From positions 1,550,001 to 1,614,000 of the forward strand of contig JAYKYS010000022.1 of the NCBI GenBank assembly GCA_036924285.1: DNA of 64,000 nucleotides, written 5' to 3'. Shown in pieces: positions 10,342 to 49,856 of this stretch (positions are counted from its first letter, which is position 1; each line of letters begins with the position of its first letter). This stretch comes from Asterella californica. Taxonomy: Eukaryota > Streptophyta > Marchantiopsida > Marchantiales > Aytoniaceae. The notes under the pieces were generated by a model. That model searched no databases, was not told where the DNA came from, and worked only from the letters and a program-made list of their open reading frames with translations. A program made the position numbers and the translations under genes.

Positions 10342-10759
10342 AAAATATATATTAAAAAACTTAAAAAACTAATTATAATTTATATCAATTAATATTCTGA
10401 TGGTGCTAGTTTCCTCTACTTGGAGTTTTGGAAACACATGTGTGTGCTTTTGGTATATAGATTTTGTTGGGTCGAACCATAATTCTTGGTTTGGCTGCTA
10501 CTTAATATTTCTTCAGTTTAGAATTTCTATATATTTTATATATTCTGAATAAACGAAAATGAACAAAAGTTCTCCAAGTTGAGTTTCGTATACATTAGGC
10601 TTCTTAGCAAGGTACAATCCACAGCGGAACAAAAATGAGTTTATTCTTCACAAAATGAATTTTCTTTTACTTTCCTCCGTATACCTACGCAATGATAGTC
10701 CACAAACCACATGCCGCTTAGAAATTTTTCACGATTATGTCGTTTTTTTCATTTAATTG

Positions 10760-11217
10760 TCGTGCGCATACACATCTCTACACAACATACATCACTGTCA
10801 AAGATACATCACACATACACATAACACATGGACGATCTCATATACATACACAAGTGTACCACAATGATAAACGAAATGTACTCACTCCATCATGCCAACG
10901 GACACTAAAGAATCACTAAAGTCGAGCTAAATTCACTCTGTGCTCGTAGAGACTCCAGATTGCACTCACAAAGACTATCCATCATAGCTAGGAGCTTGAA
11001 GGCTCAACTTGAAGAACTAAGGCCTCCAAGCCCTACTTGCGAAGTATATCCCTATTGGGTCATCCCAAGAACTCGCCCTAACGGCACTAACGACCATACC
11101 TAGATTCGTCACTCTGCACTCGGTCAACTAATCGAGGAGCCAAACTGACGTGACAGCTGTTGTGCGCATACACATAACACATGGACGATCTCATACAGAT
11201 ACACAAGTGTACTATAA
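10760..11217. repeat. Short direct repeat flanking the 3' LTR
   Basis: CACATAACACATGGACGATC plus about 30 further bases occurs at 10817-10862 and again at 11170-11217, on the two sides of the 291-base LTR. GTGCGCATACACAT occurs just before both. The inner copy is inside element A and the outer one outside it. Confidence 0.65.
10865..11155 (-). repeat. 3' LTR of element A
   Basis: Matches 31701-31992 over its whole length with scattered differences. Begins TGTCACGTCAG and ends CGTTTATCA on the minus strand. It lies about 300 bases beyond the integrase C-terminus, as expected for a 3' LTR. I see no clear polypurine tract next to it. Confidence 0.7.
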
Positions 11218-11461
11218 TCGCCCCCCTAATTGACGGTTAGGTCTCTCTAACTCCAGATAGCTCCATATCTCAACTACGTGATATACACCTTCATGGGCGT
11301 AAGGATCAGGAGGCCAAGTGCTACATCATCTCATCGTTAGTCGTTTGTTTGTAATCCATACCACGCAAAGATCTAATCGATTATTCCTGCTATAAACATC
11401 GAGGACAAACTCACCATCCAGTAGGAACGACACTGAGAGATGGAGTCAAACATGACATGTG

Positions 11462-12800
11462 CTAACCTTTAGAACAACCATCACGCACCAACATACGGAC
11501 TGTCCCACCAGCAGACCCACACAACATACACCTCAAGCTCATACGTACAAATGCTAATCTTGCGTCAGCGGTATCATCGATGTTGAGAAAATGACATGGT
11601 GCGCAATTACGCACATGGTCCTTCCGAACAACACCATCACAGCCCTCTAACATGAGTACTCCAGAAGTAACACCTCAAGCACTGGTAAAATAGTGCGTCA
11701 TGCGATCACGTCTAACGTTGTCGGTGTAGTCTGATGTAGATAGATATAATCGTCAGGATGAAACCTGCAAATCGATGACCGGTAACCTCCTCCTCGAATA
11801 ATCATAGATCGCAACATGTCTCTATGTTGAGCAATTGCTAGATTCTCAAAAGTCATAGACATAACTCTCCGAAATATCTCTGCTCGTTGAGAACATGCTC
11901 TCACCCACATATCGGGTCATCAAGGTTCAGCACCTCAGCAGAATCACGACGAATAACCGAAGGTAGATCTGGATCTCGGTCATACAATAGAAAATACGGT
12001 GAGAAGGAAGCTAAAGACGCTTGTCGGCTAAAACGGTAGCCCATAGCCAACCATGGTAACTGCACATCCTCGTCTCCCAAGTGCCCCTTTTGCAAACCGT
12101 ACTTGCGCTATCCTCTCTTCACCGTCTTAACTACCCTCTCCGTCAAACCATCCGCCTCAGGATGATCTCGAGATGTAGTCCGATGATCAATCAACGTCTG
12201 ATCACACAAGGTCTGAAACTCACCAAGCAACTCTATACCTTGATCTGTCAGCACTTCAGCTGGTGCTCCAAAACGACTCAGCACTCGATCTAAGAACGCA
12301 TACGCCGTCTCTTCACTCGTCTTGTCCGGTAATGCCACCAACTCAATCCACTTGGAGAAGTGCTCCACCATCACCAACACATATCGGTGATGACGTATAG
12401 TCAACGGTAAGGGTCCTGCAAAATCCAAACTCCAACGGTAACCCGAGTGTAACTATGGAGTAGGAGCATTAAACGATGCTTGTACTCGATCACAAACCAC
12501 AAATCGTGCGATAAACTGCTGCACATCGACGTGCATACCACGTCACCAATATTGTCCTTGGAGTAAGCTATGCGTATGCTTCACTCCAAAATGTCTCAAC
12601 TCCTCATGGGCATATAGTACTAACTGTGTCCTTTGAGATGGACGTGGTACTATTCGTACTCTCTCATCATCCCACACTCGAAGTACATATCGTCCTTCTC
12701 GCCGAAATCTTTTCGCTCGTTGAAGGACACGATCTCGTTCTTTGGCACTTACTGTGTCTACCACCACGTCAGTACATAGATAATCCATTATGATCACATC
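11462..12800 (-). pseudogene. Element A integrase remnant
   Basis: Minus-strand pieces in order. 12797-12543: N-terminal zinc-finger region with HEELRHFGVKHT and a link into the core. 12428-12108: catalytic core with MDFAGPLPL (first Asp), VLTDQGIELLGEF (second Asp) and HPEADGLTERVVKTVKR (Glu), the D,D-35-E set. 12095-11901: core end with LPWLAMGYRFSRQASL and FSPYFLLYDRDP. 11910-11698 and 11653-11462: C-terminal tail with RDMLR...GGGY and NCAPCHFL. Neighbouring pieces are in different frames or separated by stops, so the gene is dead. The spacing and motif series fit Ty3/gypsy integrases that end in a long basic tail. Confidence 0.8.
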
Positions 12801-12989
12801 ATCGTGGATATCTCGCTGGTTTGGAACACCATCTCCACCCTCAAGATCTGGAGCTCATCTATTCTATGACCAAAGAAAGATACGACTTGGCCTTCCATAC
12901 TAGATTTCATGATCAACACACAAAGAAAAGCAGATGCATGCCACCTTGACACTATCTCCTCGTCATGTCATCGAGTCTCAGTCTGATCT

Positions 12990-14158
12990 TGCTGACTCGT
13001 GCATGAGTTACAACTCAACCCATCGGCATCTAGGTTTACAACTCAAGGTCTATGTACTACTTGGAAGTCATACTCTTATAAGATAAGAGTCAATCGTACA
13101 AGCTTCCAGTAAGCTTGTCGGACTTCATCAACCACTTAAGTGATCAGTGATGTGAGCGGCTGGTGATCAGTGATGAGAGTAAAGGGGTTCTCAAACAAAT
13201 AACATCAAAAGTGTACAACAGCCCACACTGCAGCTAAACGCTCCTTCTCGTACAAACTGTACCTCGCCTACGACGAATTGTTGGAACTATTGACATACGC
13301 CATCACAAACTCCTTTTTCATCATCATGCTGAGTCAACACTGCTCCAAGTCCCAACATACTCCAATCAGTGTGCAGTTGGAAAGGACGCCCCATAACGGA
13401 TCTCTTCAAGATGGGAGCAGATGTCAACCTATCCTTGAGCTCTACAAAAGCTCGCTCCTGCTCATCTCCCCACTGCCACTCCTGGTCCACCTTCATTAGC
13501 TTGGTCAATGGCTTCGCAATTGCACTAAACCCTTTCACATATCGACAATAGAAGTTCACCAAACCAACAAATGCTCGAACTCGACTCACATCTGTGAGAC
13601 GTGAGATACGTGCAATAGCCTCAACCTTCGTATGTTGAACACCCAACCCATCTGGGTAGATGGTGTGACCTAGATACTCTACCAACTCCTGGAAGAACTT
13701 GCACTTCCTAGGGTGTAACTTCAACCCATGAGCTCTCAACCGCTCGAACACATCTCGTAAGTGTCTCTCGTGCTCCTCCACAATAGCACTATAGACTAAG
13801 ATGTCGTCAATATAACATCTGACAAAATCTAATCTTGCTAGGATCCTGTCGATCACTCTCTGAAACTCAGCATGGACGTTCTTCAACCCAAATGGTAAGA
13901 ATCGTCACTGATACAAGCAATCTTTGCCGTGAGAGTCAATTCCTCAGAATGTTGTCTTGGACTTATCTTCTTCTCTAATTGGCAACTGATGATACCCTGC
14001 TTGAAGATCCAAAGTATTGAAGACCTTCACATGCCCCACTGCATCAAAGATCTCCTCAGGTGTCGACATGACATACTTATTGGACTTCGTCTGCCGATTG
14101 ATAAGACGGTAGTCTCCATCCATCCGTCTATCCGTGTCTTACATATTGTGGTGCCCAC
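12990..14158 (-). pseudogene. Element A reverse transcriptase/RNase H, distal part
   Basis: The uninterrupted piece 13886-13287 (199 residues) holds the YIDD catalytic box (VRCYIDDILVYSA), LGHTIYPDGLGV, FVGLVNFYCRYVKGFS and the start of RNase H (LHTDWSMLGLGAVLTQHDDEKG). Upstream, 14158-13900, are the fingers and palm with KVFNTLDLQAGYHQLPI, followed by stops. Downstream, near 13000-13100, a broken frame contains QEYDFQVVHRP and NLDADGLS, the end of RNase H. The part 5' of 14158 lies across insertion C at 17777-18087. Motif order is typical of Ty3/gypsy. Confidence 0.85.
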
Positions 14159-17100
14159 AAATTACAAGATTCACGAATTTTTGAAATTTTTGAGATTAAT
14201 AACTTATTTGTATAACTGAAGAAGCGTTGTTACTTAAGATTACGGCTTCCTTAGCAGGAAGATAAACTTAAGGGCTGTTTGTAATAATAAGTTGACTTCT
14301 TCGGAAGACGATCGTCTTCCAAAGAGCGTCTTCTCGGTGGTGTCTTCGGAAGATGGAAGACGGCGGAAGACAGAAAACGCTTCGGAAGATTGGAACATCT
14401 TCAGAAGACCGTCTTCGGAAGACTGTCTTCGGAAGTCGATTGTACACAATTCGTATCAAGAGTGGATTTGCTTTGCTTTTGTGTTAAGAGAGGTTTGGTA
14501 CGAATCTTGAGTGGCTTGGTGAGTTGTTTTGTTATTTCGAGAAGTTGGACGTTAGGAACTAGGCCTGTGCCTCCCGGTCTTCCAAGCTTCTCAACTCCAC
14601 ATCTTCCTAGAGAGACTAGAAGACTGAAAGGATGGCAAAATGAGCGAGAAGACGAGAGGGTCTGTTACGGGTCTCTTCTGTCCGACCCATAGCAGCCTAT
14701 TCCTTCTTCTTCCCGAACTTAGAAGAGAGTTGTGAGAAGTCTTGTTGGCAGAATCTGGAGAGAATGGTCGAGGGTCATGTCTTCCAATCATGCAGCAAGC
14801 TTCTTCTGAGTGTGTATGAGAGGTGAGAAGTCAGAAGAACAGAGTGCAAATGTCTTGAGTCTGTTGTGAGGATAGATTGCGCGTAGGAAGAAGAAGACAG
14901 GTGAGACCAGTGAAGGGAAGCCTGCCTTCGGGAGGTCTTCCGAGAAAGACATTGAATCGGAAACTGTCCCGGGAGTCTTCCCAGAGGCCACTGTCACCCC
15001 AGGAGCCCGCAACCATCTTCTGAATCTTTCCTATACTCTACTTCTCGCATATCTTGTATCTTCTGTTAGGAAGTAGGATGTAATGCAAGGTGGGTTGTCT
15101 TCTTAGGAATCCATGCGTGGCCTTGCTTAGTTAGGATTGATTCGATACAGCTCGGAAGACGAGTGCTACTTAGGAAGCATTGTTAGAATCTTAGAAGACG
15201 AAGTAGATGTCTTCTGGAAGACTAGATTCGTCTTCTGAGAGTGGAAGCTATAATGTGAGGACTTAGGGAAGGACTGAGCCTTCGACTCACAACAAGTACG
15301 TCACTTCTTCCAAGGAGTTAGCGCAGCTGAAGAAGAGCAACCAGGAGTTACAAGCGCGCTTACAGCAGCGTGATCAAGAGGTTCTGCGAGTACGGGGTAA
15401 GATCACCGCCCTTGCAGAAGAGAAGACGACGTGGAAGACTCTACGGGAAGCCGCAGAAGCGCAGGTTGCAGCCGAGAAGACGCAAAGAGAAGCAACGGAA
15501 GCTCGTGCACAGGGGTTACTAGCTCACTCGGTGGAAGCGCTTCGGAAGAAGTTCAACTTCATTGCGGGTAGGAAGCTCCTTACCTTAGCTAGGGAGTGGG
15601 ACGATGAGTCCAAAGCAATGTTGGTGGAGTGCAAGGAGAGTATGTTCCGATACTTGGATCGGCAGATAGAGGGAGTGAAGACACTCTATGGTCTTCCCTT
15701 GATCCCGCCACCAGTAAACGCATCTTCCCAAGCACCAGCATCATCAACAGGATCAGACTTGGAGAAGGAGGAGTTCGACCTCGCTGTGCACTTGGTAGTG
15801 ATAGTGTTGGAAGCCGAGAAGACTCCGGAAGACGCCCCGGAAGACAGGAAGACGAGCCGTCTTCCCAGGTATTTTGCGTGGAAGAAGCTACTTCCCCGGA
15901 CTCCTATGAGGTCGTCATGGTCCCTAGTGCCGCACCCGTGCCTCAGAAGACCGAAGACGCACCACTCGACTCTGCTTCCCTGAAGACGCTTCTGTCTTCC
16001 GAAGCAGAAGCCGAAGCCGAGGAAGACGCAGCAGCAGCGACAGCAGGGTCAGCGAAGAACGATGAGGAGGAAGCCACCTCAGTGACACCCGAGGTAACTG
16101 TAGGGATTTCTAGCTTATCAGAAGCCGCGTTATGAGCTCGATAGGAGCAGATCAGGTAGAGATTGTCACCGAGCAATCAGAGTAGATAGTAACTGAAGTG
16201 ACAACTCCAAATTTAGTAGGAACAAACATGCTATCTTAAGGGTGGCAGTTTTCCATGTAAAATTAGTTAGGACACCATGTGGCAGCATACGTAGCGTAGG
16301 CAACAAAGTGGATGGCTAATTAGGAAGGGGAACCGCTTGCATGTGGGGTGGCGACCTCCTGTCAACGCCCCTCTCTCCCTGGTGGTCGCCTCCTCTGATT
16401 CTCACGGCAGCGACATAAGTAGGATTGCAGCGTAGGAATGGAGCTAGCTGCTGCACACACACATCGATTCTATGGTGCAGGCAGACTAGACACATTCGAG
16501 AGAAGACACATGATAGATAGTTCTTCGCACACTACACCCGTCGTTGGAAACATACGAATAGTTTGGGAATACACAGGAGGGGTCTGCATGCTCGTACCAG
16601 CAGTGGTTCGGAGATATAGATAGAGATAGTGGACAGTTTAGGAACAGGGAACGACATCCTCGTGCAGTCCTGTTGACTAGACTGGTGTGTCGAGAGTAGA
16701 CGCAGGAAGTAGAGGGAGTGAGCTTCCCAATGCCATTGTGACTTCTTCTCGGGGAATGGATTGTGGATTTGAGTGCAGAAGCTTTGTTCATGTCTTCTGG
16801 GTGGTGGGTTTCCTTGAATTCGCTCCCAATTGTGCATGAGAAGTGTTCTTCTTGAGTGGCGGTGAATGTCAACAGTTGTGGAAGTGTAGCTTGACTCGTT
16901 CAGTAGAGCACTTGGGATCTACGTACGAACGGTCTTATGGGTAAGGGATCCCAGAAGACAGAGTAGTTAGAGCAGCGAAGTGAAGAAGAAAGAAGTCTTC
17001 TTCCCACAGCAGAAGACGACATCCTCGAGTAAAAGACGGTGCAACAGTACTCACGTTTGTTGTCTTCCTCCCCAAACTATTACAAGCAAGGATGGCTTGT

Positions 17101-17776
17101 TAGTCAGGATCCGGACTAGAAGCCTGTCGGAATCTTAATTTCTTCTTTTCATCTTGTTTTCTCTTGTTTGGATTTTCTCATCTTCCCCATCTTCTCTCAT
17201 CTTCCCCATCTTCTTACCTTCTTCTAGTGAGGTCCGAGACTTCTATTGAGCTTCCGTGAAGATGAATGTCGTTGTAGTGCTGCAGGAAGACCATTTCCGT
17301 AGGCAGAAGCCTGGGAAGGCTACAAGGGGCATACACCCTGTGATTGATCTAACCCGTTGTGATGGGAGTATGAGAGCAAGTTGTAACAGCCGTGCTAGTC
17401 GACTTCTGCGAAGCAGGACAGTCTTCTGGAGGTGTGAGAAGACGAGCTGAATCCCCAGAAGACGAGAATCGCTTCGGGAAGACGGTATCGAGAAGACCGG
17501 AAGAAGTGACCTGGAAGCAGGAAGATCGTCTTCCTGAGCTTCTCTGTGAATAGTTGTGTGATATTTTAGTTAGTAGTTGTTTGTTTAGTTCCAGAGTACC
17601 TTTTGGAGTGTCTAGAAGACGCGTGGTTTTGTGAGAAGACGGGATTCCTAGGCAAAACCCGTGTGTTTGTGTGTTTGAACAGATCTTAGAACTTAGAGCA
17701 GGGTTACTTGTGCAAATCCTCTGTGGAACGATATCTTGTACACTAAATGGGCAAAAGGAGTAATCCTGCGTCACTA
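14159..17776. mobile_element. Insertion C: GAAGAC-rich insert in element A
   Basis: A 3.6-kb stretch unrelated to element A that interrupts A's reverse transcriptase. The A frame stops at the basic KK-D motif near 17780 and resumes at about 14158. CCACA on the left and ACACA on the right may be a mutated target duplication. The insert has a different base composition and carries about 53 copies of GAAGAC or GTCTTC between 14.28 and 17.65 kb, where about two would be expected. It holds one coiled-coil coding remnant on the plus strand. I found no LTRs or terminal inverted repeats, so its class (non-autonomous LTR element or other) is open. Confidence 0.65.
15266..16135 (+). pseudogene. Coiled-coil, gag-like coding remnant in C
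   Basis: Open from about 15266 to 15983 without an early ATG. The first ~90 residues are strongly heptad-like (ELAQLKKSNQELQARLQQRD, then EEKTTWKTLREAAEAQVAAE), predicting a long coiled coil. A conserved-looking block follows (WDDESKAMLVECKESM), then a Pro/Ser-rich linker. Around 15,815-15,870 the sensible frame moves to the frame ending at 16135, which is Ala/Glu-rich and acidic (SEAEAEAEEDAAAAT). This suggests one frameshift in a longer ancestral frame. The acidic repeats come from in-frame GAAGAC-type hexamers. It resembles retroelement gag-like coiled-coil proteins in style only. No family is assigned. Confidence 0.45.
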
Positions 17777-18087
17777 CACATATCTTTCTTTACTGACATA
17801 ATTGTGGCAGATGCATACTCTCCATGCGACATCTCCATCAACCTAGCCTCCAACAAGTCTTGACTCCTACTCTGGATCAAGGCTCTCTCCATGTCACTGT
17901 ACTTGTAAGGACGTCGAAAGATTGGCGTGTCATTAGCCAAGTCGATCTGTATATTGAAAGCAAAACAATTCATGTAGCTCTTCAAGAATCTTTGAACTCT
18001 TCGTCTCTCCTCTCCTATAAGCCTGGGTCCAATCTTTGGCTCCCAAGTATCCTTTGTCACCATGCTAGAGACAGAAGACGAAGTCAT
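17777..18087 (-). pseudogene. Element A reverse transcriptase, proximal part
   Basis: The frame 18087-17743 contains GPRLIGEERRRVQRFLKSY, a typical linker before gypsy reverse transcriptase, then FRRPYKYSDMERALIQ and SATIMSVKKD, matching the start of the polymerase fingers. Family forms continue with a DYR and TPEEIFDA stretch, which here is found at about 14.1 kb, beyond insertion C. The reading order proves that C split this gene. Confidence 0.8.
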
Positions 18088-18310
18088 TGACTGCTATCTT
18101 GCAGCCTCTGGAGCAGTTTCCTTCTACTCACTACCAACAACCTCCACCGCCACTGTGTGAAAAACCCCTACAGTCCTAGCTGCAAGCTCCACATTCTCTC
18201 CTATGACATCCCATGATGTCCAAGGATGACGAACTCCACACGCCTAGCCCCCAATCTTTACCTCCACCGACTCAAGAGACAAAGAGCTCAAAAGTGTCCG
18301 AGCAGTAACA

Positions 18311-18344
18311 CTGAGCAGCGTCGATCACATTCGACGCTGCTCAG
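18311..18344. repeat. Perfect 14-bp inverted repeat
   Basis: Arms CTGAGCAGCGTCGA and TCGACGCTGCTCAG with the 6-base loop TCACAT. It lies between the methyltransferase end and the reverse transcriptase start of element A. Confidence 0.8.
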
Positions 18345-18363
18345 CCAATCTAAGGCTAACAAT

Positions 18364-19006
18364 TCATGTCAAGCAATTCAAGTCCATTGCTTGACCCAGT
18401 ACTTGACGACGTGAAGCCTCCAACATCGAAGCTACTGTCGTCGTATCCGTAGCAAAACCCATTGCTCGCTCTCTCTCATCGGCATTGGGCTCCACCAACT
18501 GCCGTAATTGAGCATCCAACACAAGCTCAAGTCCTCCATCTCTGTAAGCATGTGACCTTGGAAAGCTCGTCAAAGTGGGTAACGTTATCATGGACCGTCC
18601 CACTAGGTTCATCACTGCCATGGATGATCTATCGACAACTCTCATTACTTGAGATCTTCGTCCTGCATCCAAGATGCCATCAACTATGAGGTGTGCTGGT
18701 CGTCTCATTACATCTTCTACGCGCTTGAGCTCCTCCTTCGATAACAAGTTCGTCCACCACAACCATGGACGATGTGCACAAGATCCCACTCTCCCTGCAT
18801 CTAACAACACTGCCGGTCCGACCCAGGACCGCACTTGGTGCACACTCGTCATCATCTGTGTATGAGCATCACCCAACAAAAGAACGGTCTCCAAGATGTA
18901 TGCTGGAGAATCCACCTGATGCATCTGGAGATGTCGTAAGATCCGTAACATCTCTCAAAACATCATAGATCGCGGGTCATGTAAACCCTGATCGCTCCCA
19001 ACACGC
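18364..19006 (-). pseudogene. C5-DNA methyltransferase domain, C-terminal part (element A)
   Basis: Minus-strand frame 18951-18364 with a short lead-in from 19006. Motifs of cytosine-5 methyltransferases are seen in order: PAYILETVLLLGD (motif VI, usual ENV changed to ETV), AHRPWLWWTN (motif VIII, usual R-x-R), ERERAMGFATDTT (motif IX with the E-A-x-x-x-M/L-G-F/Y pattern) and RRQVLGQAMDLNCL (motif X, usual GN-A/S-V). The lead-in contains RSMMF followed by a TGA. The missing N-terminal half is at 27344-27655, beyond element B, in the same orientation. The domain sits between protease and reverse transcriptase of element A. In an active element it would methylate cytosine in DNA; this copy is broken. 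Reports of gypsy elements carrying such enzymes exist (recalled: de Mendoza and colleagues, 2018, dinoflagellate and charophyte). Confidence 0.82.
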
Positions 19007-20878
19007 TGTCGTGTCGTGGACCGGCTCCTACTTGAAATTCAAACTTCGATGCTTGTTGCTCCAAAGACACTCATGAGAAGACAAGCTAGGCCCCAGCTTA
19101 CGTGTTTTTGGCACCACTTCGGATCTTCGTTTTTATCGCGCCAGTGGATAGAGCTCCTTGTCAGCTTTCCATAGGCACTTCATCTACTTCGTTTGGACGC
19201 CTAGTGGAAAAGTTACAAGACTCGAAAGATGGAGAAAACAAGCTAGGCCCAGCTTACGGGCTTTTGGCGCAACTTCGGATCTTCACTTTCATCACATAGA
19301 TGGGTAGAGCCCGCTGTCAGCTTTCCATGGGCATCTTGTTTACTTCATTTGGACATCCATAGAAGAAGTTATGCGATTCGAAAGAAGGTAAAATCAAGCT
19401 AGGCCCCTAGTTACTTGCTGACTGGGTATTTAGGGCTTCAGGCGTTATATCAAAGACGCAAGGGGCCTGCTTCTTATTATTCAAGAGAGAACTGTACATA
19501 CGGAGACTGTTGCAAGGGGGTTGCTTAAGGGGTTTGCTTGTTCTTGCGACCTGTCGATGGATGTTTTGGAGAATTGAGAAGTCCAATACACGCACACAAG
19601 GTGTCATCGGGTTCAGATCTGTGCAGGCTACGCACAGGTTAAGACGGTTCTTGAAGAGACGGATCGGGGGTTGTGTTCTGAGAAAGATTGAGACGCAGGA
19701 AGCAGATTTGAGGTTTTCAGTTACCTGTGAAGGAGAGTTGGACCGTTCGGGCCGTTTCGGGCCGTTTCGGAGTCCAAACTTGCTGTCCTTGGATCCATCG
19801 GGATCAGAACAACGAGTTCTTCAGGAAATTGAAGACGATTCAAAGTTTCATCGGACGGTTTGGGAGTTGTGAGTGAAATTGGCTCGCAGGGAAGCGCTTA
19901 CATCAGATTTTCGTTCGCCTGCGATCTGAGATTGGGTTGTTCTTCGCGATCGGTGAGCCAAGCTCTTCGTTCTTGGTGCCTACGCGATCAGGGAGTCTTC
20001 ATGTACGCATAGGAGAAGACTGTACGTGAATTGGATTGTTGGTTTGGGTGTGGTGAGCAAGTTTGAGCCGCAGGGAGCTGATTTGTGTCAGTTTTTTGCA
20101 ACCTGCGACCAAATTTCTTGCGTGGTTTTGCAAGAGGAACTCCAAACGACTTGTTTGGAGTCTTGTTGGGTTCAGGGTAGCTAGATCTACCTACCAGAGA
20201 AGACGGATATCAGTTTAGGCGATCCGTTTGTGCGTGGTGTGCGGTTTTAAGCCGCAGGGAGCAGTTTTTGAAGGTTCGGTCACCTGCGACCGAAAATCAG
20301 CAATACCTCGGCTATCAGGAGTCGGATCTGAAGGTTTCTTGGGTTAACGGAGTCAGCAGAGGAGACCCTATCGACATCTGAAGTCCGTTCAGCGAAAGGA
20401 AGAAGTCCACAGATAGGTTTTTTTCGATTTCTTCGCTAAGGGTTTTGCTCTTTTGAGTTCGTTAGAGTTCTGGTTGGCTGTATACAGCTTGTGGTAGCTA
20501 GCTTTAGCCAAGAGCTAGTGTGTGGATGTGGTTTGGACTTGGGTTTAAATCGCGTGATACTGTTGTGGCTCTGGTTGTTAGCAAAGAGAAGTTTCTCTTG
20601 CTTTGAGCTACGCTTGGCGATTTCAGGCTAGGGTTGCGATGCAGGGGGTTTGTTTTAGGGCTTCTGAAGTAGGTTACAGACCGCTCTGGTCTGTTCCTCA
20701 GTTTTGTGCTGTTAGGAGAAAGAAACGGCAGTGTACATACATTTGGAGTGGTATATATTGCACGTTCGTTTTCGTGGTTGTTCTTCTCTGTCTTGTCTCT
20801 GTTGGGCACACAACATCTCCACAGCCAGGAACCTCGCGTTTTCCTGGACATCCTTCACGCAAAATATCCGACACGATA
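19007..20878 (+). repeat. 5' LTR of element B
   Basis: 1872 bases. Near its start it has two tandem copies of a 157-base unit (starting at 19081 and 19238 with ACAAGCTAGG) and the beginning of a third at about 19394. A 10-base GGGCCGTTTC duplication at about 19747-19766 is absent from the 3' LTR and accounts for most of the length difference. Confidence 0.9.
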
Positions 20879-20953
20879 CGGTGGTGAACTCGACGTGAAG
20901 GTCTGGGGTGGAGATTCTTCTGTGTGTGAACTTTGAAGAAGAGATTGGCAGTC

Positions 20954-23900
20954 ATGAGTGGGGATGGGAAAGGTGATGGAGATGGAGCTAGTGGTTCAAG
21001 TGGGTTACCGAAGGTGCAGTTGGATTCGGCGACTGCATCGATGTTCTAAGCTTTCACTATGTTCTTACGACAGCAATAGTCTGATGAGCGGAAGGAAGCT
21101 TTGGCAACAAAGGCGCTACAAGCGGTGGTCAACAGGATTGACCAGTTTGATGGAAGAGATGTCTCAAGGTATCTGAGACATTATGTGAAGGAGATGGAGC
21201 TGAACCGGGTCTCAGAAGATGAGATGATTGAGACGTTTGAGTTGGCAGCAGCTCCAGAGATTAGGGATCATGTTAAAATGCTAACGAAGCATTTTAACAA
21301 GGATTGGGAGACTTTTGCTCGTGCCTTGATGGATGAGTACTTCTTGGAGGACTCTGATCGAGTCACCAAGAAGTCATTCTTGGAGTGGGTTGAGCAACCA
21401 AGGAAGGGTTTACAAGCTACTGAGTTGCTCAGAGAGTTTGAGAAGCAGTTTTCACGACTGACCAGGATCGAGAAGTTGACGTTGCAGTCCAACAAGACAG
21501 AGCTATTTCTTCGGGCTGCAGATGAGAAGTTGCAGGAGAAGCTAGAGGTACTTCTGGAAGACCGGGAGGAGGACGATGGATTGACCAGCAGCTGGAAGAA
21601 GGTTGAGGAAGCTGTTGGTCTGCTTACCAAGAGGGAGCGGAGACGAGAGAAAGTTCCTGTTAGGAGACTGGCGCCAACACCTACAGCTGTAACACCTGTT
21701 CCTGTAGTCCGACCAGTTCTTGTTGCTAGACAAGTAGTACCAGTTGCTCCAACTGTTCCTGTTGTTCCAGTTGTTTAGGCACCCATGGTATCTCCGAAGA
21801 AGGATGACTCAAACCTTGAGGAGATATTGCGTGGAATGCGAGATCTGCAGATCAAGCTCATCAGATTGGAAGAGAAGGGATCTACAAGTGGAGTAAGACC
21901 GGTTGAGAAGCAAGGCTGGATCCAGCGGTGTATCTGGTGCGATGGTACTGATCATCCGCGCGGAGATTGCAAGGAGTTCACAGATATTCTGCAGCAAGGA
22001 GTGATCTTCTGGAAGGATGGGAAGGTAGCGCTGAGGGATACTGGTGCACTTCTTCAGACCAACTTTGGTAAGGGAGGGATGAAGAAGTTGGTTGAGGACC
22101 ACCTATCAGCACAAGCAGTTGCAATGGTGGAAGTTGGAACTTATGGCACAAGGGTTGAGGATCAAGCTGAGAGGAGTTTCAACAAGGAGGTTGAGCCAAG
22201 TGGATTGTGGTCATCTGCCATCTCCATGAAACAGAAAGGGAAGATGGCACGTGAAACATTGATGAGGACAGCTGCTACGATCAGAAAGGATACTGGATGG
22301 GAGGATATGGATAAGGTCGTGCAGATTCATTCAAGGGAGGTCTATTCGGTGATCGAATCATTTCGTGCACCGGAGGTTCGAGTTGAGACAAGGTACAAGA
22401 CAGTGGATAGGAAAGTAAAGCCAGTTGCTGGTCCTTTGCCGGAAGACACCAACCAACAGATGGATCGAGCTTCAAAGGAGAAGAGTTTGAGAGATCCTGC
22501 AATGATAGGACACAAGTTCACGAAGAAGACCCTTGAAGAGCTGAAGATTGGATCTGATGGGTCTCTTCTACCAGAAGAGAGGATGTGTTTCAAGGAGATG
22601 CTTTCAAGACATGGGAAAGCATTTGCTTTTGAGCCACATGAGATTGGGTGTGTAGATCCGTACGTTGTTACCCCGATGGTTATCTTCACGGTACCGCATG
22701 TGCCATGGAACCTGAGATCAATTCCAGTACCGCGGGCTCACTTGTCCAAACTAGTGGAGTTGATGAAGGAGAAGATGCGGATGAAGATCTTGGAGCCGTC
22801 GTTTGCACCATATTCAAGCAGATGGTTTACAGTACCGAAGAAGAATGGGTCGTTGCGGTTCATCCAAAACATGCAGCCGGTGAACGCAGTAACAATCAGA
22901 AATGCTGGGGTGGGACCGATTGTGGATGAGTTTGCTGAAGCGTTTGCAGGAAGAGCAATTTACTCAATGGGAGATCTTTACTCAGGGTATGATCAGTTTC
23001 AACTAACAGAGGAGAGCAGAAGCTTCACGACAATGAGGACACCTTTGGGGTTGGTTAGGATGTGTACTTTACCACAGGGAGCTATCAACTCGGTAGCACA
23101 CATGATGAACGGGATGAATCGAGTTCTAAGAGACTTCATTCCTGAAAAGACGATGCCGTTCTTCGATGACATCCCTATTAAAGGATGTGTGGAAGATGAG
23201 AAAGATGAAGCATTAGATCAGAGGGGATGTCGGCGATACGTCACTGATCACATCGCAGACTGTGAGAAGATCTTATCTCGACTTGAGGAAGTTCATCTTA
23301 CGCTGTCAGGTGCGAAGTCTACATTTGGAGTTAGAGAGGTTTTGATCGTTGGTCATTTGTGTGGATCGTTTGGTCGGAAGCCAGATCCGAACAAGGTGGA
23401 TGCGATTGGAAGGATGAAGGAGGTTTGCAACTCGCTGACAAAAGTAAGAAGATTTTTGGGTGCTTGTGTATTCTATCACATTTGGATTCCTCATTATGCG
23501 TATGTGACGGATCCGTTGTATGGATTGTTGCGTAAGGGTCAGAAGTTCAAATGGGAGGAAGAGCATACTGATGCGGTAAGGAAGCTGAAGTCTTTACTAT
23601 CGTCTCCTCCAGTTCTGGGAAGGATTGATTACAAGGGTACTAGGCCGGTGGTTCTTACTGTGGATACAAGTCCAGTTGCAATTGGATGGGCAGTCGGACA
23701 GGATGATGAGGATGGAGACATGTTTGCGGTTAAGTTCGGAGCGAAGGTGTTAAGTGTTCGACAACGTGCTTACCCGCAAGTGAAGAGAGAACTGTGGGGT
23801 ATTGTTTCAGATATGAAAACTGAGAAAAAGTATTTGATTGGAGCAGTAGTGGTGGTTGAAACTGATTGCCTGCCGTTGTTAGGGATGATCATGAATTGTT

Positions 23901-25405
23901 CAACTCCTGATATTGCGATGTTACGATGGATCGCATATATCAAGTCGTTGAACCCGGAGTTTAGACATATCGCAGGGAAAGATAATCCGATAACGGATAT
24001 GTTATCTCGAGCTCGGTATGATGGGGAGGATGAGATGATTGAAGATATTGACGACGTGGGCGCAAAGTTCTATTCAATTGCACAGACAGGAAGGGAAGAT
24101 GAGTTGTTTGTTGAAGGATTGTATGATGGTGATTTGCTTGATATCGGGAAGTACCTTAGTACGATGATTAAGCAGACAGGTTGGACGGATGAGAGGTTTC
24201 GGAGAGTTCGAAGGAAGGCCTACAACTTCATGTTGCAGGATGGGTTTCTTTGGAAATGACCAACGTAGAAAGGTGGGGTACCACTACGGGTGATTTGCAA
24301 CAAGGAAGATCAGCAGAAGTTGCTCAAGGCGTTCCATGAGAATCTTTGGGCTGGACATCGAGGGATTTGGGCCACTTTTACAAAGATGAAAGAGCGGCGT
24401 GACGGATTACACCCGACTTATCCGTTGACGATCCACTTCAAGTGGGTGGTAGACTTGGTGATTATGCCGGTTGGGATGTGGCAGATGAGATACTTGGTAC
24501 TTGCTAGAGAAGATCTTTCAAATCAAGTCGAGGGTAGGGCGCTTCGGACGAAGACAACTGAAGGGGTATGTAGATTTCTCTTGGAAGAGGTTGTTTGTCG
24601 GTATGGATGTGTGGGAAAGATCACTGCAGATCGGGGAGAGCTAGATGCACATGAGGCTCGTGAATTCTTTGCAAGGTGTGGGGTGAGGTTGTCACTGACA
24701 ACTGCTTACAACCCCAAAGGGAATGCCAAGAGTGAACGTGGTCATCCACCCATTGTGAAGACTTTGGTGAAGGCTTGCAACACAAGGGTACGCGAGTGGC
24801 CTCGACTCTTACCATTTGCGTTATGGGCAGATCGAACGACGCACAGCTCGGTGACAGGTTACATGCCGGTGGAACTCATCACAGGTCAGAAGCCTATCAT
24901 GCCGATTGAAGAACATGTTCTGACATGGAGTGTGTTACCTTGGGAAGACAATTTGACTAGAGAAGAGCTTCTTGCTATTCGAATTAGGCAGTTAGAAAGA
25001 AGACCAGAGGATATCCAAACTGCTTTGGATAGGCTGCGAGAAGCACGGTTGAAGAACAAGGTCAGATTTGATCAGCGACATCGTTTGAGACCCAGGGAAA
25101 TCAAAGAAGGTGATTGGGTGTTAGTCTATGACAACAGTCTAGACAACCAGCATAGTGCACTCTGGAAGTTTTCCAGAAGATGGTTTGGTCCGTATGTGGT
25201 GAAGAAGGTTCATGACAACGCAACTTACGCCCTGCAAGAGTTGGATGGAACGAGCTTGAAGGTACCAGTGGCAGGTAAACGTGTCAAGATTTTCAAAAAG
25301 AGAGATGAGGAGGTCGATCTAGCAGATATCTTGACGGAGTTTCAGTTTGAGGATGAGGATTATGCAGAAGATCTTGAAGGTGAGGTTGGTTACGATGAGA
25401 AGTAG
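20954..25405 (+). pseudogene. Element B gag-pol, one frame with nonsense codons
   Basis: A single frame of 1484 codons interrupted by in-frame stops: TAA and TAG near 21047-21079, TAG at 21776, TGA at 24257 and TAG at 24266. Gag (from 20954) contains FELAAAPEIRDHVKML and DRVTKKSFLEWVEQP. The following part has one CCHC-like cluster (CIWCDGTDHPRGDC). Reverse transcriptase spans about 22540-23500 with FAPYSSRWFTVPKKNG, DLYSGYDQFQL and an unusual MPFFDDIPIKG in place of YxDD. RNase H follows with TVDTSPVAIGWAVGQ. The integrase has WVVDLVIMP, ITADRGELDAHEAREFF and NPKGNAKSERGH (D,D-35-E). Its N-terminal zinc finger keeps the two His (AFHENLWAGHRG), but the second half with the Cys pair is deleted. 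Dead but well preserved. Confidence 0.9.
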
Positions 25406-25480
25406 GACGATAAGCCGGTCCACTCCTTGGTTGGTATCTCTGGTGCATATCGGAGGATGCACAAGTTCAGAGGGAGTGGA

Positions 25481-27343
25481 TGTCGTGTCGTGGACCGGCT
25501 CCTACTTGAAATTCAAACTTCGATGCTTGTCGCTCCAAAGACACTCATGAGAAGACAAGCTAGGCCCCAGCTTACGTGTTTTTGGCACCACTTCGGATCT
25601 TCGTTTTTATCGCGCCAGTGGATAGAGCTCCTTGTCAGCTTTCCATAGGCACTTCATCTACTTCATTTGGACGCCTAGTGGAAAAGTTACAAGACTCGAA
25701 AGATGGAGAAAACAAGCTAGGCCCCAGCTTACGGGCTTTTGGCGCAACTTCGGATCTTCACTTTCATCACATAGATGGGTAGAGCTCGTTGTCAGCTTTC
25801 CATGGGCATCTTGTTTACTTCATTTGGACATCCAGAGAAGAAGTTATGCGATTCGAAAGAAGATAAAATCAAGCTAGGCCCCTAGTTACTTGCTGACTGG
25901 GTATTTAGGGCTTCAGGCGTTATATCAAAGACGCAAGGGGCCTGCTTCTTATTATTCAAGAGAGAACTGTACGTACGGAGACTGTTGCAAGGGGGCTGCT
26001 TAAAAGGTTTGCTTGTTCTTGCGACATGTCAGTGGATGTTTTGGAGAATTGAGAAGTCCAATACACGCACGCAAGGTGTCATCGGGTTCAGATCTGTGCA
26101 GGCTACGCACAGGTTAAGACGGTTCTTGAAGAGACGGATCGGGGGTTGTGTTCTGAGAAAGATTGAGACGCAGGAAGCAGATTTGAGGTTTTCAGTTACC
26201 TGTGAAGGAGAGTTGGACCGTTCGGGCCGTTTCGGAGTCCAAACTTGCTGTCCTTGGATCCATCGGGATCAGAACAACGAGTTCTTCAGGAAATTGAAGA
26301 CGATTCAAAGTTTCATCGGACGGTTTGGGAGTTGTGAGTGAAATTGGCTCGCAGGGAAGCGCTTACATCAGATTTTCGTTCGTCTGCGATCTGAGATTGG
26401 GTTGTTCTTCGCGATCGGTGAGCCAAGCTCTTCGTTCTTGGTGCCTACGCGATCAGGGAGTCTTCATGTACGCATAGGAGAAGACTGTACGTGAATTGGA
26501 TTGTTGGTTTGGGTGTGGTGAGCAAGTTTGAGCCGCAGGGAGCTGATTTGTGTCAGTTTTTTGCAACCTGCGACCAAATTTCTTGCGTGGTTTTGCAAGA
26601 GGAACTCCAAACGACTTGTTTGGAGTCTTGTTGGGTTCAGGGTAGCTAGATCTACCTACCAGAGAAGACGGATATCAGTTTAGGCGATCCGTTTGTGCGT
26701 GGTGTGCGGTTTTAAGCCGCAGGGAGCAGTTTTTGAAGGTTCGGTCACCTGCGACCGAAAATCAGCGATACCTCGGCTATCAGGAGTCGGATCTGAAGGT
26801 TTCTTGGGTTAACGGAGTCAGCAGAGGAGACCCTATCGACATCTGAAGTCCGTTCAGCGAAAGGAAGAAGTCCACAGATAGACTTTTTTCGGTTTCTTCG
26901 CTACGGGTTTTGCTCTTTTGAGTTCGTTAGAGTTCTGGTTGGCTGTATACAGCTTGTGGTAGCTAGCTTTAGCCAAGAGCTAGTGTGTGGATGTGGTTTG
27001 GACTTGGGTTTAAATCGCGTGATACTGTTGTGGCTCTGGTTGTTAGCAAAGAGAAGTTTCTCTTGCTTTGAGCTACGCTTGGCGATTTCAAGCTAGGGTT
27101 GCGATTCAGGGGGTTTGTTTTAGGGCTTCTGAAGTAGGTTACAGACCGCTCTGGTCTGTTCCTCAATTTTGTGCTGTTAGGAGAAAGAAACGGCAGTGTA
27201 CATACATTTGGAGTGGTATATATTGCACGTTCGTTTTCGTGGTTGTTCTTCTCTGTCTTGTCTCTGTTTGGCACACAACATCTTCACAGCCAGGAACCTC
27301 GCGTTTTCCTGGACATCCTTCACGCAAAATAACCGACACGATA
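25481..27343 (+). repeat. 3' LTR of element B
   Basis: 1863 bases, nearly identical to 19007-20878 apart from the missing 10-base duplication and scattered substitutions. Both LTRs share the altered end ATA instead of the ACA expected from element D, so this change predates insertion. Confidence 0.9.
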
Positions 27344-27655
27344 ACGCATGTGACCTTAATATGACCACTAGGCTATCACCAAGTGAATGGTGCCAACAAA
27401 CGTGAGATCTTGCGCCCTCAACAGCAAAATATCCGACGGTAATGCTTGCTGGTATCCTCTAATGGCTGATATGAGCAACAACTCAAGATATCTATGCACC
27501 AAACGTGCCACATGACGCAATGAGATGCGTCTCACAACCTCATCTCTCTCCACATACAAGTATCGCTGTACTTGTATGCCTGTCTGCAATATCGTAGCCA
27601 AACTTGTGCTGATCTCTCCAAACAACTCCAACACACATATACCCTCTTCTAAATA
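27344..27655 (-). pseudogene. C5-DNA methyltransferase domain, N-terminal part (element A)
   Basis: The minus-strand frame starts with a VLELFGEISTSLATILQ stretch, the S-adenosylmethionine-binding motif I (usual D/E-L-F-x-G-x-G/S). RRYLYVERDEVVRR-like sequence follows with the motif II acidic residue, then LPSDILLLRAQDL (motif III) and IHLVIA. The catalytic motif IV, normally G-x-PCQ, reads stop-W-S-Y-stop just before the edge of element B: Pro has become Ser, the nucleophile Cys Tyr, and Gln a stop. All three are single transitions. The protease of element A lies upstream. Together with 18364-19006 this makes a complete methyltransferase motif series. No separate host promoter or intron is visible, so it is part of the retroelement polyprotein. 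Confidence 0.82.
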
Positions 27656-28025
27656 CTGTCACACAATGGCAGTCGTATCCAACGGTGATAAGGTTACAGG
27701 ATCAATAGCAGGAACAATCTTTGGTTCCTCTACTGATGATACAAAGGCTTCACTCCAAACCTGCGACACCAACCGATCAGCATACTGCTGCAACTCTCCA
27801 CTCGAACTCCAGAGCAGGACATCCAAAGCAGATGGGCTTCAAAGATCGGAGTATCCTCTGCATGGGCATTATCCTCTAACAACTCGCCCGGTCAAGTGCT
27901 GACCGAACTGAATCTTGCAACAGAGCCATCATCCCTGGTGTAGGCTCCCTTATCTCAACTCTAGCACTGAACCGCACTGGTCTCTCACCGGACTGCCAAT
28001 CTGGTCTGTAAGATGTTGTCTCCGT

Positions 28026-28564
28026 TCAATAGTCGATCACGAACCCCATAGGATATAACACAGCACCTCCAACCAATACATCATAAGACTCCGCGGTCGT
28101 AACGATGATCTTGGCTCTCACCATGGAGTCATCCGTGGGGTGATCTGATCGAACTCTCATCGTCGACATCTCGCGTGTCATGTGTAGAGTTGTACCTCTT
28201 GATCCTCCTAGAGATGTCTGTAGCTGGAATGGACATCTCTCCACCTCGGACTCCTTCAAACTCAAACCAATGCACGTCGTCTTTCTCAACATCAACGGCT
28301 GGGCTTCAGAGTCTAACAAGACTTTTTGCGACTGATACACCTTCCCTGAAGGTGCCACCAAACAGAAGATACCACTTCTGTTGTCCAACAACACCACATC
28401 TGGTGCCAAACCAGCACGGTCAATCTCCTAGCAGCCACCGCTTGCCAAGTACCACTGGTAGCTGTCTTGATCCTCGACTTCATGGACACGTCTATCGTCT
28501 CTCGCTGAACCACCTCAGCACTAGAGATAACAACATCCTCGCTCTCATTGAGCGTGACCGTCAA
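28026..28564 (-). pseudogene. Element A aspartic protease
   Basis: The frame 28409-28026 has KVLLDSEAQPLMLRK, matching the gypsy protease active site (LLDSGAQP) with Gly changed to Glu. PFQLQTSLGGSRGTTLHMT and AESYDVLVGGAVLYPMGF then follow, the flap and C-terminal I/L-L-G-like region. An overlapping frame to 28564 carries the upstream linker. It lies between gag (28.6-30.4 kb) and the methyltransferase part at 27.66 kb, all on the minus strand. The active-site change alone predicts loss of function. Confidence 0.75.
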
Positions 28565-28599
28565 CTAGAACACTAGAGCCAAGCTGACTCCCAATGCTC

Positions 28600-30453
28600 T
28601 CATATCCATGGCTGAAAATAGTCGGGCTTGCAAAATTGATGTAACCACCTCCAACATGGGTATTTCGACGTCGCATCCATAGACGTCAAGGGTTGTCTCG
28701 CATCATCATCACTCTTGGATGTCGATGCCTGTAACTCCACTACATCATCGATAGGTCGTTTAGGCATCACCGACGTGATCCTCAATGTTGTCGATAATGT
28801 GAACGATTGAGGAAGCCTGGTCTGTCTACCAGCCTCCCCGCGTTGTGGGTCCAACTCCACCGACGCATCTCGTGGCTCAGAGACACGTACTGCACCTCGA
28901 GTCACTGCCGCAGATGTCTCAATTTGCACCACACCAACCACGAAGTCGAAGTCATCTCTTTCTCCTTCATAAGAAGTGGAAGCTTCTGTTCCACCAGATC
29001 TCCGCTGAGCCATAACCATACTAGCTATCCTCTGCTCCAACCAACTGCTCAATTCGAGCAGCCATACCTGCTTCTGACGTTCTAGCAAGCGGTGGACCGA
29101 CTGATCCTCTTCCAGGTGTTGGACATCTACCTCCAGCTCGACCACCACGGCCTCCTTTAGCTCCTCCGCCTTTCCTTGTCGTAGCTCAGAATGGAGATCA
29201 AAACAACGATCACTATTGTGACCAGGTCGCTCGCAATGCTCACATTGCCTAGGTACCGCTTGAGACGTCCTTGACGTCTCATAACCACCTCTCCTCTGTA
29301 GACAGTCCTTCTGCTGATGAGGACCATCACACGTCCAGCAAGGACCCGCTTGCTGCTGACTAGAGAAGGAAGGCATGGGCTTCTGTCCACCAGATCCTCC
29401 AACACCTCCGTGGAATCATGACTACTTCGCACGATCCTTACCACCACCACCTCCATGCTGTTGCGTAACCTGTGATCCTTGAGAAGAGGTGGTCGTCCCA
29501 TGTGGTGTCTCCTTGCTGAACCCAGCAACCACCACCCTCTCCTCTTGATTAAATCCGCTCAGTCAAACCAAAGACAACAGCCAACGTCGGAGCGGTGTCT
29601 CCGACATCTCTGACTCTCTTACGCAGCTCCCGATCTAGTATCTCATACCAGAACTGGACTGCCTATGTTTTCGTCACCCCTTAGGTAACATTGATCAACC
29701 GTCTCATGCGAGTAAACGTCTCGCGTAGGCTCTCTCCAGTTTTCCGCTGGAACTTATGCAGACTCCTCAACTTGTCAGTCCGCACACCTTGATAGTTCTT
29801 CCTCAAACACTAGAAGAACTGAACCACATGGTTAAACCCTGGTGGTATCTCGCTCACACTACCACCTGCTCCACTACTAGTGAACGCACCACCGGTAATA
29901 TGTACTCCGTCATCCGTGGATGTACCACTGCTACTGGCATCCGAACTCGTAAGTGCTACGCCTCTTGAAACTACGCCAGTAGTGATAGAAACATAGTTGG
30001 GAGACCAATGTTGTCTCCACAACTCAATCTCCACATTATAGTCTCGCCGGAACTCATGATACTCGTCCATAGGCGGTCCCTCCAAGTGTTGGAACAAACT
30101 CTTCCACGTCATGAAGGGTGTAAACAGCTGTGGGTTCCGCATCTACTGCAGATCGCTCAACTGTCGAACTCTTGGATAAAGTCATCCAGCTCAATGATAT
30201 CCATTGTACCTGAGTAACGTCGAGGTCTCTTCATGGTCTCATAGATCTCGTCCATGTCCCACAACAACGGTGTGGTGACACTAGACTCATTATCAGAAAA
30301 TGCGTTGTCTGCGTCTGACTCGTCCTCTAGAACAACCGACGGCAATGGTGTAGAAAGTCGGTACTTCATCCCACTCCATGTATACCCACTGTCCGAGAAA
30401 TCCTCACCAGAACCTCCCGAGAATTCCGTGATGATAGAATCTCGATAACACAC
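28600..30453 (-). pseudogene. Element A gag
   Basis: N-terminal pieces at 30453-30157 (acidic, ending IIELDDFIQEFDS) and 30142-29810. The conserved gag core at about 29770-29550 reads KFQRKTGESLRETFTRMRRL, with QFWYEILDRELRKRVRD after two stops. The well-kept C-terminal frame 29376-28600 (258 residues) contains CWTCDGPHQQKDC and a canonical zinc knuckle CEHCERPGHNSDRC (CX2CX4HX4C), followed by a long linker with leucine-rich segments. Frameshifts and stops separate the pieces. The plus-strand open frames over this stretch are shadows. Confidence 0.8.
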
Positions 30454-31700: not shown

Positions 31701-31992
31701 TGATAAACGGTATGTACTCATTCCATCATGCCAACGAGCACTAAACAATCACTAAAGTCGAGCCAAATCTACTCTATGCTCGTAGAGACTTCACATTGCA
31801 TTCACCAAGACTATCCATCATAGCTAGGAGCTTGAAGGCTCAACTTGAAGAACTAAGGCCCCCAAGCTTTACCTGCGAAGTATACCCCTAGTTGGTCATC
31901 CCAAGAACTCACCCTAACGGCACTAACGGTCCTACCGGGATTCACCACTCCGCACTCGATCAACATAGCCGAGGAGCCAAACTGAAGTGACA
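31701..31992 (-). repeat. 5' LTR of element A
   Basis: 292 bases, TGTCACTTCAG...CCGTTTATCA on the minus strand. Matches 10865-11155. Divergence between the two is clearly higher than between the LTRs of element B, which agrees with A being the host of B. Confidence 0.7.
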
Positions 31993-49709: not shown

Positions 49710-49856
49710 CCGTCTAGAAATCCATCATCCCAGGTCCGCAGCATCCTCCCGAACAACCAAATCCATCTTCATCCTCGTTCATGATTGTTGATCTCCTCTT
49801 CCAAGTTCTAACACACAAATCTCCACCCCGGACCTTCACGTCGAGTTCACCACCTA

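What the first reader, a model, noticed from the sequence alone, without database searches (positions are those of the whole stretch)
18364..27655. A cytosine-5 DNA methyltransferase domain inside a Ty3/gypsy polyprotein
Seen in sequence: between protease and reverse transcriptase of element A the minus strand carries motif I (LELFGEIST), motif II (YVERDE), a ruined motif IV, motif VI (YILETV), motif VIII (RPWLWW), motif IX (RERAMGFATD) and motif X (RRQVLGQAMD). They are in the correct order, split only by the later insertion of element B. Known: retroelements with captured C5-methyltransferases were described in a dinoflagellate and a charophyte alga (from memory, de Mendoza and colleagues 2018). 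Inference: the element once methylated DNA, perhaps its own copies, to soften or exploit host silencing. A land-plant case would extend the range of this gene capture.
Basis: partly seen in the sequence, partly recalled or inferred. Interest (0 to 1): 0.92.

Follow-up and report, generated by a model that had tools for sequence, protein, structure and literature searches.

The report
Jumping gene carrying a DNA methyltransferase
The window holds a dead copy of a plant jumping gene that had captured a DNA-methylating enzyme; better-kept copies lie elsewhere in the same genome, and relatives occur in liverworts, peat moss and green algae, so one can ask why a jumping gene would carry the mark used to silence it.

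Summary

The family combines four features: the MT ends the Gag-protease frame; one conserved UAG in the leaky context CAG UCA follows; in-frame RT-RNaseH-integrase ends in a PHD finger; the repeats are DIRS-like. At least 1,683 junction sites occur genome-wide. Species-named relatives of this layout are bryophytes; another group, with two green-algal labels, has the MT between RNaseH and integrase.

A charophyte gypsy-Dnmt3 was known (2018). My searches found no report of land-plant members, Gag-side placement or the PHD tail. Catalysis, readthrough and self-methylation are inferred, not shown.

The parts
31701..31992 (-). A1, the 5' terminal repeat of element A; ATTA duplication at 31993-31996
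   Evidence: pairs with A2 at 88.0%, K2P 0.129; ends and flanks
29552..30444 (-). Gag region remnant of frame 1, 4 stops
   Evidence: tblastn of a genome copy's frame 1, residues 1-301, 81-82%
28427..29544 (-). zinc-knuckle and linker region of frame 1, 3 stops
   Evidence: tblastn residues 307-684; CCHC motifs read
27924..28424 (-). protease region of frame 1, 1 stop; DSGA of other copies reads DSEA here
   Evidence: tblastn residues 694-865, 80%; motif read
27344..27658 (-). methyltransferase, N-terminal half (motifs I, II and a ruined IV), 2 stops
   Evidence: MT residues 1-105, 82%, E 1.2e-50
19007..27343 (+). element B, a gypsy element without Pfam methyltransferase or PHD match, nested in the MT; LTR K2P 0.014, flanks ACGC
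18337..19005 (-). methyltransferase, C-terminal half (motifs VI, VIII, IX, X), 2 stops
   Evidence: MT residues 105-327, 82%, E 2.1e-114
18088..18096 (-). frame-1 stop UAG followed by CAG UCA
   Evidence: read; same site in 33 of 34 distinct genome copies
17779..18054 (-). start of frame 2 (RT N-terminal part)
   Evidence: tblastn frame 2 residues 14-116, 74%
14138..17777 (.). insertion C, unclassified, interrupts the RT; edges from nucleotide alignment
   Evidence: gap between element positions 6222 and 6232
12854..14137 (-). rest of RT and RNase H, with stops
   Evidence: RVT_1 7e-19 and RT_RNaseH_2 3.5e-14 on 13287-13904
11913..12854 (-). integrase region, 3 stops
   Evidence: tblastn frame 2 residues 548-867, 86%
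11393..11665 (-). C-terminal tail with PHD finger, 2 stops
   Evidence: tblastn residues 951-1041; read
11158..11218 (-). B1 remnant
10865..11155 (-). A2
10758..10865 (-). B2, 3' end of element A; ATTA duplication at 10754-10757
   Evidence: 93% to B of a genome copy

Best explanation
Element A is a dead copy of a Ty3/gypsy-type retroelement that carries a DNMT3-class cytosine-5 DNA methyltransferase. SHOWN by sequence in other copies of the same genome: frame 1 holds Gag, zinc knuckles, a protease motif and the methyltransferase; one in-frame UAG in a leaky context follows; frame 2 holds RT, RNase H, integrase and a PHD finger; repeats are A-coding-B-A-B; outer ends are TGTC...GACA with 4-bp duplications. 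INFERRED: most ribosomes stop at the UAG, so the methyltransferase is made at Gag level and packaged, while the minority that read through make Pol. In the particle or on nuclear entry the enzyme methylates the element's own new DNA before integration, so that the new copy arrives already marked and provokes or costs the host less. The PHD finger steers integrase to chromatin with unmodified H3K4. The window copy decayed after insertion and was then split by element B.
For: PF00145 on frame 1 and RT, RNase H, integrase and PHD on frame 2 of a genome copy. DNMT3 is the nearest solved relative by sequence and fold. Motifs I, IV, VI and IX intact in 20 of 20 copies, VIII and X in 19 of 20; MT dN/dS 0.22 pooled, 0.18 median, near the protease's 0.21, against 0.47 and 0.61 for the two halves of the dead window copy. 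UAG CAG UCA in 32 and UAG CAG CCA in 1 of 34 distinct copies, and UAG in 96 of 100 listed of 1,683 sites. A1-A2 repeats identical in 4 of 15 measurable copies. Matching 4-bp flanks in 12 of 16 readable copies and in the window. A DIRS-type retroelement DNMT3 did methylate CG in yeast (PMC5890265).
Against: No activity, readthrough or packaging was measured. The 20 copies were picked for long open frames, and dN/dS pairs are not independent. CpG obs/exp of the copies is 0.71-0.74 in 19 and 0.63 in 1, against 0.77-0.80 in element B and the rest of the window: at most a weak mark of self-methylation. The charophyte relative KnitGypsy-Dnmt3 gave no methylation in yeast, which its authors call inconclusive. 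Only 76 of 112 near-full element MTs have PCQ and 77 ENV; 15 have PCN.
Confidence: 0.5

Rival explanations
1. The enzyme acts in trans on the host genome or on rival elements rather than on its own cDNA.
For: Gag-level expression from many copies could free enzyme into the nucleus; the 2018 authors raise effects on the host methylome for dinoflagellates (PMC5890265).
Against: Selection acts on copies that transpose, which favours effects in cis; no host effect was tested here.
Confidence: 0.2
2. The domain methylates RNA, or serves as a nucleic-acid-binding or Gag-stabilising part without methylation.
For: DNMT2-type C5 enzymes methylate tRNA (recalled); some wider-family domains lack PCQ or ENV.
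Against: DNMT3 affinity and catalytic motifs kept in 20 of 20 copies here.
Confidence: 0.15
3. The UAG is a true end: frame 2 is made by reinitiation at a nearby ATG or from a spliced RNA, not by readthrough.
For: Frame 2 has an ATG at its 11th codon. Some Marchantia models run from MT into Pol sequence (P0128, P0132, P0135), as splicing or gene-model artefacts would.
Against: Same frame, UAG kept in 96 of 100 listed sites, and a CAR YYA context expected about once in 512 by equal base frequencies (my arithmetic), described as essential for TMV readthrough in plants (PMC2754532).
Confidence: 0.15
4. Chance motifs in an unrelated gypsy linker.
For: Neither half has a Pfam hit alone.
Confidence: 0.01

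Closest known systems
KnitGypsy-Dnmt3 of the charophyte Klebsormidium nitens (PMC5890265; parts 1-3 of 7 and passages read)
   Same: Gypsy domains, Dnmt3-related methyltransferase, DIRS-like repeat arrangement (figure legend), purifying selection
   Different: There the MT is described as part of the Pol ORF; here it ends the Gag-protease frame before a UAG. That paper's text mentions no PHD or readthrough. Its sequences were not retrieved, so common descent is untested.
RT-RNaseH-MT-integrase-PHD elements seen here, incl. Monoraphidium P0246 and Chrzof1 P0192
   Same: Related MT, PHD finger after integrase
   Different: MT lies between RNase H and integrase: RT before MT in 30 of 32 proteins with both near-full domains
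SymbioDIRS-Dnmt3 and SymbioLINE-Dnmt of dinoflagellates (PMC5890265)
   Same: Retroelement-borne C5 methyltransferase; DIRS-like repeats in the first
   Different: Tyrosine recombinase or LINE machinery, not a DDE integrase
DNMT3A/DNMT3B
   Same: Motif order, sequence and predicted fold
   Different: PCQ instead of PCN in motif IV; no PWWP or ADD domain beside it
Rice gypsy element RIRE2 and TMV-type leaky stops (PMC2754532, passages)
   Same: Readthrough proposed in plant gypsy elements; UAG CAR YYA signal of TMV
   Different: The passages mention no methyltransferase

Membership tests
C5 cytosine methyltransferase (PF00145) | Pfam profile over its cut-off | tested here: met
   Genome copy 36.5 bits, cut-off 22; the window halves alone give no hit
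C5 cytosine methyltransferase (PF00145) | Catalytic Cys in motif IV and ENV in motif VI | tested here: met
   20 of 20 genome copies; NOT met in the window copy, where PCQ is gone and ENV reads ETV
DNMT3 | Closest by sequence and fold, unrearranged motif order | tested here: met
DNMT3 | Falls inside the DNMT3 clade in a rooted tree | tested here: inconclusive
   37 element MTs form one side of a branch (100/99) against 4 host DNMT3/DRM rows; no root and long host branches
Ty3/gypsy | RT-RNaseH-integrase order with a DDE integrase | tested here: met
   Ty3 Gag-Pol is the top PDB match, 8.8e-99
Ty3/gypsy | Two equal long terminal repeats | tested here: not met
   A1 ... B1-A2-B2 split repeats instead
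DIRS/PAT elements | Tyrosine recombinase | tested here: not met
   Integrase rve and H2C2 found, no recombinase match in Pfam
KnitGypsy-Dnmt3 | MT inside the Pol ORF | tested here: not met
   MT is in the frame upstream of the UAG
KnitGypsy-Dnmt3 | DIRS-like repeats with gypsy domains | tested here: met
KnitGypsy-Dnmt3 | Common descent of the MT and RT | not testable with these tools
   No Klebsormidium row was named or 53
Chromovirus | Chromodomain after integrase | tested here: not met
   PHD finger there (8.1e-11), no chromodomain match
TMV-type (UAG CAR YYA) readthrough | Signal sequence | tested here: met
TMV-type (UAG CAR YYA) readthrough | Measured readthrough product | not testable with these tools
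   Needs a reporter assay or mass spectrometry

The most novel reading that the evidence does not exclude
An old lineage of green-plant retroelements joins a DNMT3-class de novo methyltransferase to a histone-reading PHD finger on integrase. In bryophytes the enzyme sits on the Gag side of a leaky stop, so each particle carries many copies of it and delivers a self-methylated insert to inactive chromatin. Retroelements would thus write their own epigenetic state on arrival, in a family with over 1,600 junction sites in one genome.
Probability: 0.4. Interest if true: 0.88.

Novelty: new variant of a known kind. Interest (0 to 1): 0.78.

Why it matters
Why a transposon should encode the mark that silences it has been open since 2018. 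Here the same kind of capture lies in Marchantia polymorpha, a tractable model plant, with a layout that predicts Gag-level enzyme and a PHD-guided integrase, so the question becomes directly testable. A 2019 opinion paper argues that transposon methylases are absent from 'land plants, such as tracheophytes' and builds on that loss (PMC6338049, passages); liverworts and Sphagnum contradict the land-plant part, while tracheophytes were not tested here. Element ORFs are also named as DNA (cytosine-5-)-methyltransferase in UniRef (P0004, P0136), which can mislead counts of host enzymes.

Tried and rejected
Chance or an unrelated gypsy linker: rejected.

Bacterial-type origin: HaeIII and HhaI match more weakly than DNMT3. 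DNMT1 is not among the rows listed, which excludes nothing.

Strong CpG loss as a mark of self-methylation: not seen.

Viral contigs as a source of whole elements: 2 stretches matched a pattern, none was confirmed.

RT tree to test single ancestry: element B dropped out of the rows, and Ty3 was the only row without MT, so it shows bryophyte (4 rows) and RT-MT-integrase (34 rows) RTs as separate clades but not whether they are sisters. In the first MT tree I mislabelled P0165 as bryophyte by number range; it falls with the RT-MT-integrase group and makes both groups read as 2 changes there; that tree took 34 of 65 rows of that label. The second tree used 41 rows chosen by hand.

My CCHC pattern was wrong by one residue and tagged nothing; the zinc knuckles are read directly.

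Klebsormidium sequences: no row named so in the three protein searches; the last two scored only the 7,990 and 7,996 candidates sharing most words, and one search lists 120 of 194. The host species was not identified.

Paper searches: ten, open-licence library only. PMC5890265: parts 1-3 of 7 plus passages. PMC12344493, PMC6338049, PMC6317226, PMC5784723, PMC2754532: passages only. All others: search listing.
Full report
WHAT WAS CHECKED. The motifs are there. Alone, neither half reaches any Pfam family even at E<=10. The C-terminal half nevertheless finds 194 proteins at E<=1 among 404 candidates, the best at 4.6e-76. Of the 120 rows listed, 17 carry PF00145 and 13 name a species, all 13 liverworts or Sphagnum. 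In a joint alignment the N-terminal half is 66% identical to a Calypogeia MT. Against another copy in the same genome the halves cover MT residues 1-105 and 105-327, each 82% identical with two stops. They meet at the edges of element B, 19007-27343.

THE WHOLE ELEMENT. Element A spans 10758-31992 with the 4-bp duplication ATTA on both sides. A genome copy matches it in three main stretches, 31298-27344, 19006-17778 and 14137-10758, at 86-87%. It is interrupted by element B and by an unclassified insertion at about 14138-17777. Its two A repeats differ by K2P 0.129, against 0.014 for the LTRs of element B, in keeping with the order of insertion. The window copy is dead: motif IV is stopped twice and has no PCQ, ENV reads ETV, and stops lie in the Gag, protease, MT, RT, integrase and PHD stretches. 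dN/dS to the other copies is 0.47 and 0.61 in the two halves.

OTHER COPIES IN THE SAME GENOME. The window's assembly (516.7 Mb, 773 contigs) gave 123 PF00145 places, 123 of 1,250 candidates being scored; a few of these are host genes. I fetched 20 element places, chosen for long open frames, so they are a biased set. Frame 1 is 1,367-1,381 residues in 16 of 20 and shorter in 4; frame 2 is 1,038-1,041 residues in 12 of 20; 10 of 20 have both. In 17 of 20 the long frame 1 ends in the same UAG, with frame 2 in the same reading frame after it; in L025, L027 and L028 it ends earlier at another stop. Pfam finds DNA_methylase in frame 1, and RVT_1, RNase H, H2C2, rve and PHD in frame 2. It finds no Gag or protease family in frame 1 of that copy; those are assigned from the CCHC and DSGA motifs in the sequence and from a weak, below-cut-off protease match in a relative (P0141). 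Motifs I, IV, VI and IX are intact in 20 of 20 copies, VIII and X in 19 of 20. Pooled dN/dS: MT 0.22, protease 0.21, gag 0.26, PHD 0.24, integrase 0.12, RT 0.08, over 18-20 copies each. A1-A2 pairs could be measured in 15 of 20 copies: K2P 0-0.023, 4 of 15 identical.

THE STOP CODON. I looked for the site in 36 element stretches, which are 34 distinct copies because L004/L009 and L011/L057 are the same places. It was found in 33 of 34 (L055 gave no match): UAG CAG UCA in 32, UAG CAG CCA in 1. The window keeps UAG CAG UCA at 18096-18088. A pattern search with the stop codon left open and 3 mismatches allowed found 1,683 places genome-wide, against 0 for the reversed pattern; of the 100 places listed, all with perfect flanks, 96 have TAG, 3 TAA and 1 AAG. 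These are junctions, not proven full elements. CAR YYA after UAG is described as essential for TMV readthrough in plants (PMC2754532, passages). Of 34 related proteins with the MT in a Gag-protease-type frame, 31 end 0-143 residues after the MT; P0128, P0132 and P0135, all Marchantia models, run on into Pol sequence.

REPEATS. Copies have A1 (294 bp) at the 5' end and B1-GC-A2-B2 (108, 294, 108 bp) at the 3' end, with outer ends TGTC and GACA. The 4-bp flanks match in 12 of the 16 copies where both could be read; they do not in L012, L015, L024 and L025. This is a DIRS-like arrangement in an element with a DDE integrase. The 2018 paper says the same of KnitGypsy-Dnmt3 in a figure legend.

RELATIVES. 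Frame-1-type proteins occur in Marchantia polymorpha, Calypogeia fissa and Sphagnum. In the MT tree the bryophyte rows are a clade (100/100), and a second Gag-protease-MT group from contigs without species names lies beside them with moderate support (88/86). A third group has the order RT-RNaseH-MT-integrase, often with a PHD finger: RT precedes MT in 30 of 32 proteins with both near-full domains. It includes rows labelled Monoraphidium neglectum, a chlorophyte, and Chrzof1, which I recall as Chromochloris zofingiensis. A PHD pattern occurs in 46 of the 251 proteins held. The PHD of the genome copy is most like KDM5B, KDM5A, CHD4 and PHF21A fingers, with UHRF1 and BAZ2 below; that several of these read unmodified H3K4 is recalled. 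In the wider family 76 of 112 near-full domains have PCQ, 15 PCN and 77 ENV.

HOW IT LIKELY WORKS. Shown: anatomy, conservation, number of junctions, recent insertions. Inferred: readthrough, packaging, catalysis, methylation of the element's own DNA, PHD targeting. My odds: DNMT3-class domain in a gypsy element 0.97; active DNA methyltransferase in intact family members 0.85; readthrough 0.8; self-methylation as main role 0.4. Against self-methylation: CpG obs/exp is 0.71-0.74 in 19 copies and 0.63 in one, against 0.77-0.80 in element B and the rest of the window, and the charophyte relative was inactive in yeast, judged inconclusive by its authors.

NOVELTY. Known: gypsy with Dnmt3 in one charophyte, and MTs in dinoflagellate LINE and DIRS elements (PMC5890265). 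A 2025 DNMT survey mentions retrotransposon DNMT3s, citing that work (PMC12344493, passages). A 2019 survey of plant LTR elements lists Gag, protease, RT, RNase H, aRH, integrase and chromodomains, and its text has no methyltransferase or PHD (PMC6317226, passages). A 2019 opinion says that land plants, such as tracheophytes, lack transposon methylases (PMC6338049). My ten searches found no report of bryophyte members, Gag-side placement before a leaky stop, or the PHD tail; the library is open-licence only. I rate it a new variant of a known kind.

Noticed in passing
window 14138-17777: A second, unclassified insertion interrupts the RT of element A.
   Followed up: no
window 45385-51378: Two inverted, mutually near-identical stretches resemble the LTR of element B at about 90-96%, perhaps a further copy of that family.
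   Followed up: no
window 39485-41415 (-): Two pieces of an LCAT-family acyltransferase gene, probably a host gene (PF02450, 4.4e-35 and 1.8e-6).
   Followed up: no
window 52497-52991 (-): A copia-type gag remnant (PF14223, 2.2e-24).
   Followed up: no
L001/L050 and L002/L049: Host methyltransferases: a DNMT3-like gene with PCQ rather than PCN in motif IV, and a DRM with rearranged motif order.
   Followed up: partly
P0240 and P0249: Unnamed proteins where the MT matches lie before the RT in one frame; P0240 branches outside all other element MTs, so it may show an early stage.
   Followed up: partly
genome copies, between B1 and A2: Two bases (GC) separate B1 and A2 in most copies and in the window, as if the inner junction copies an end-to-end joined form that could serve to rebuild the ends.
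   Followed up: no
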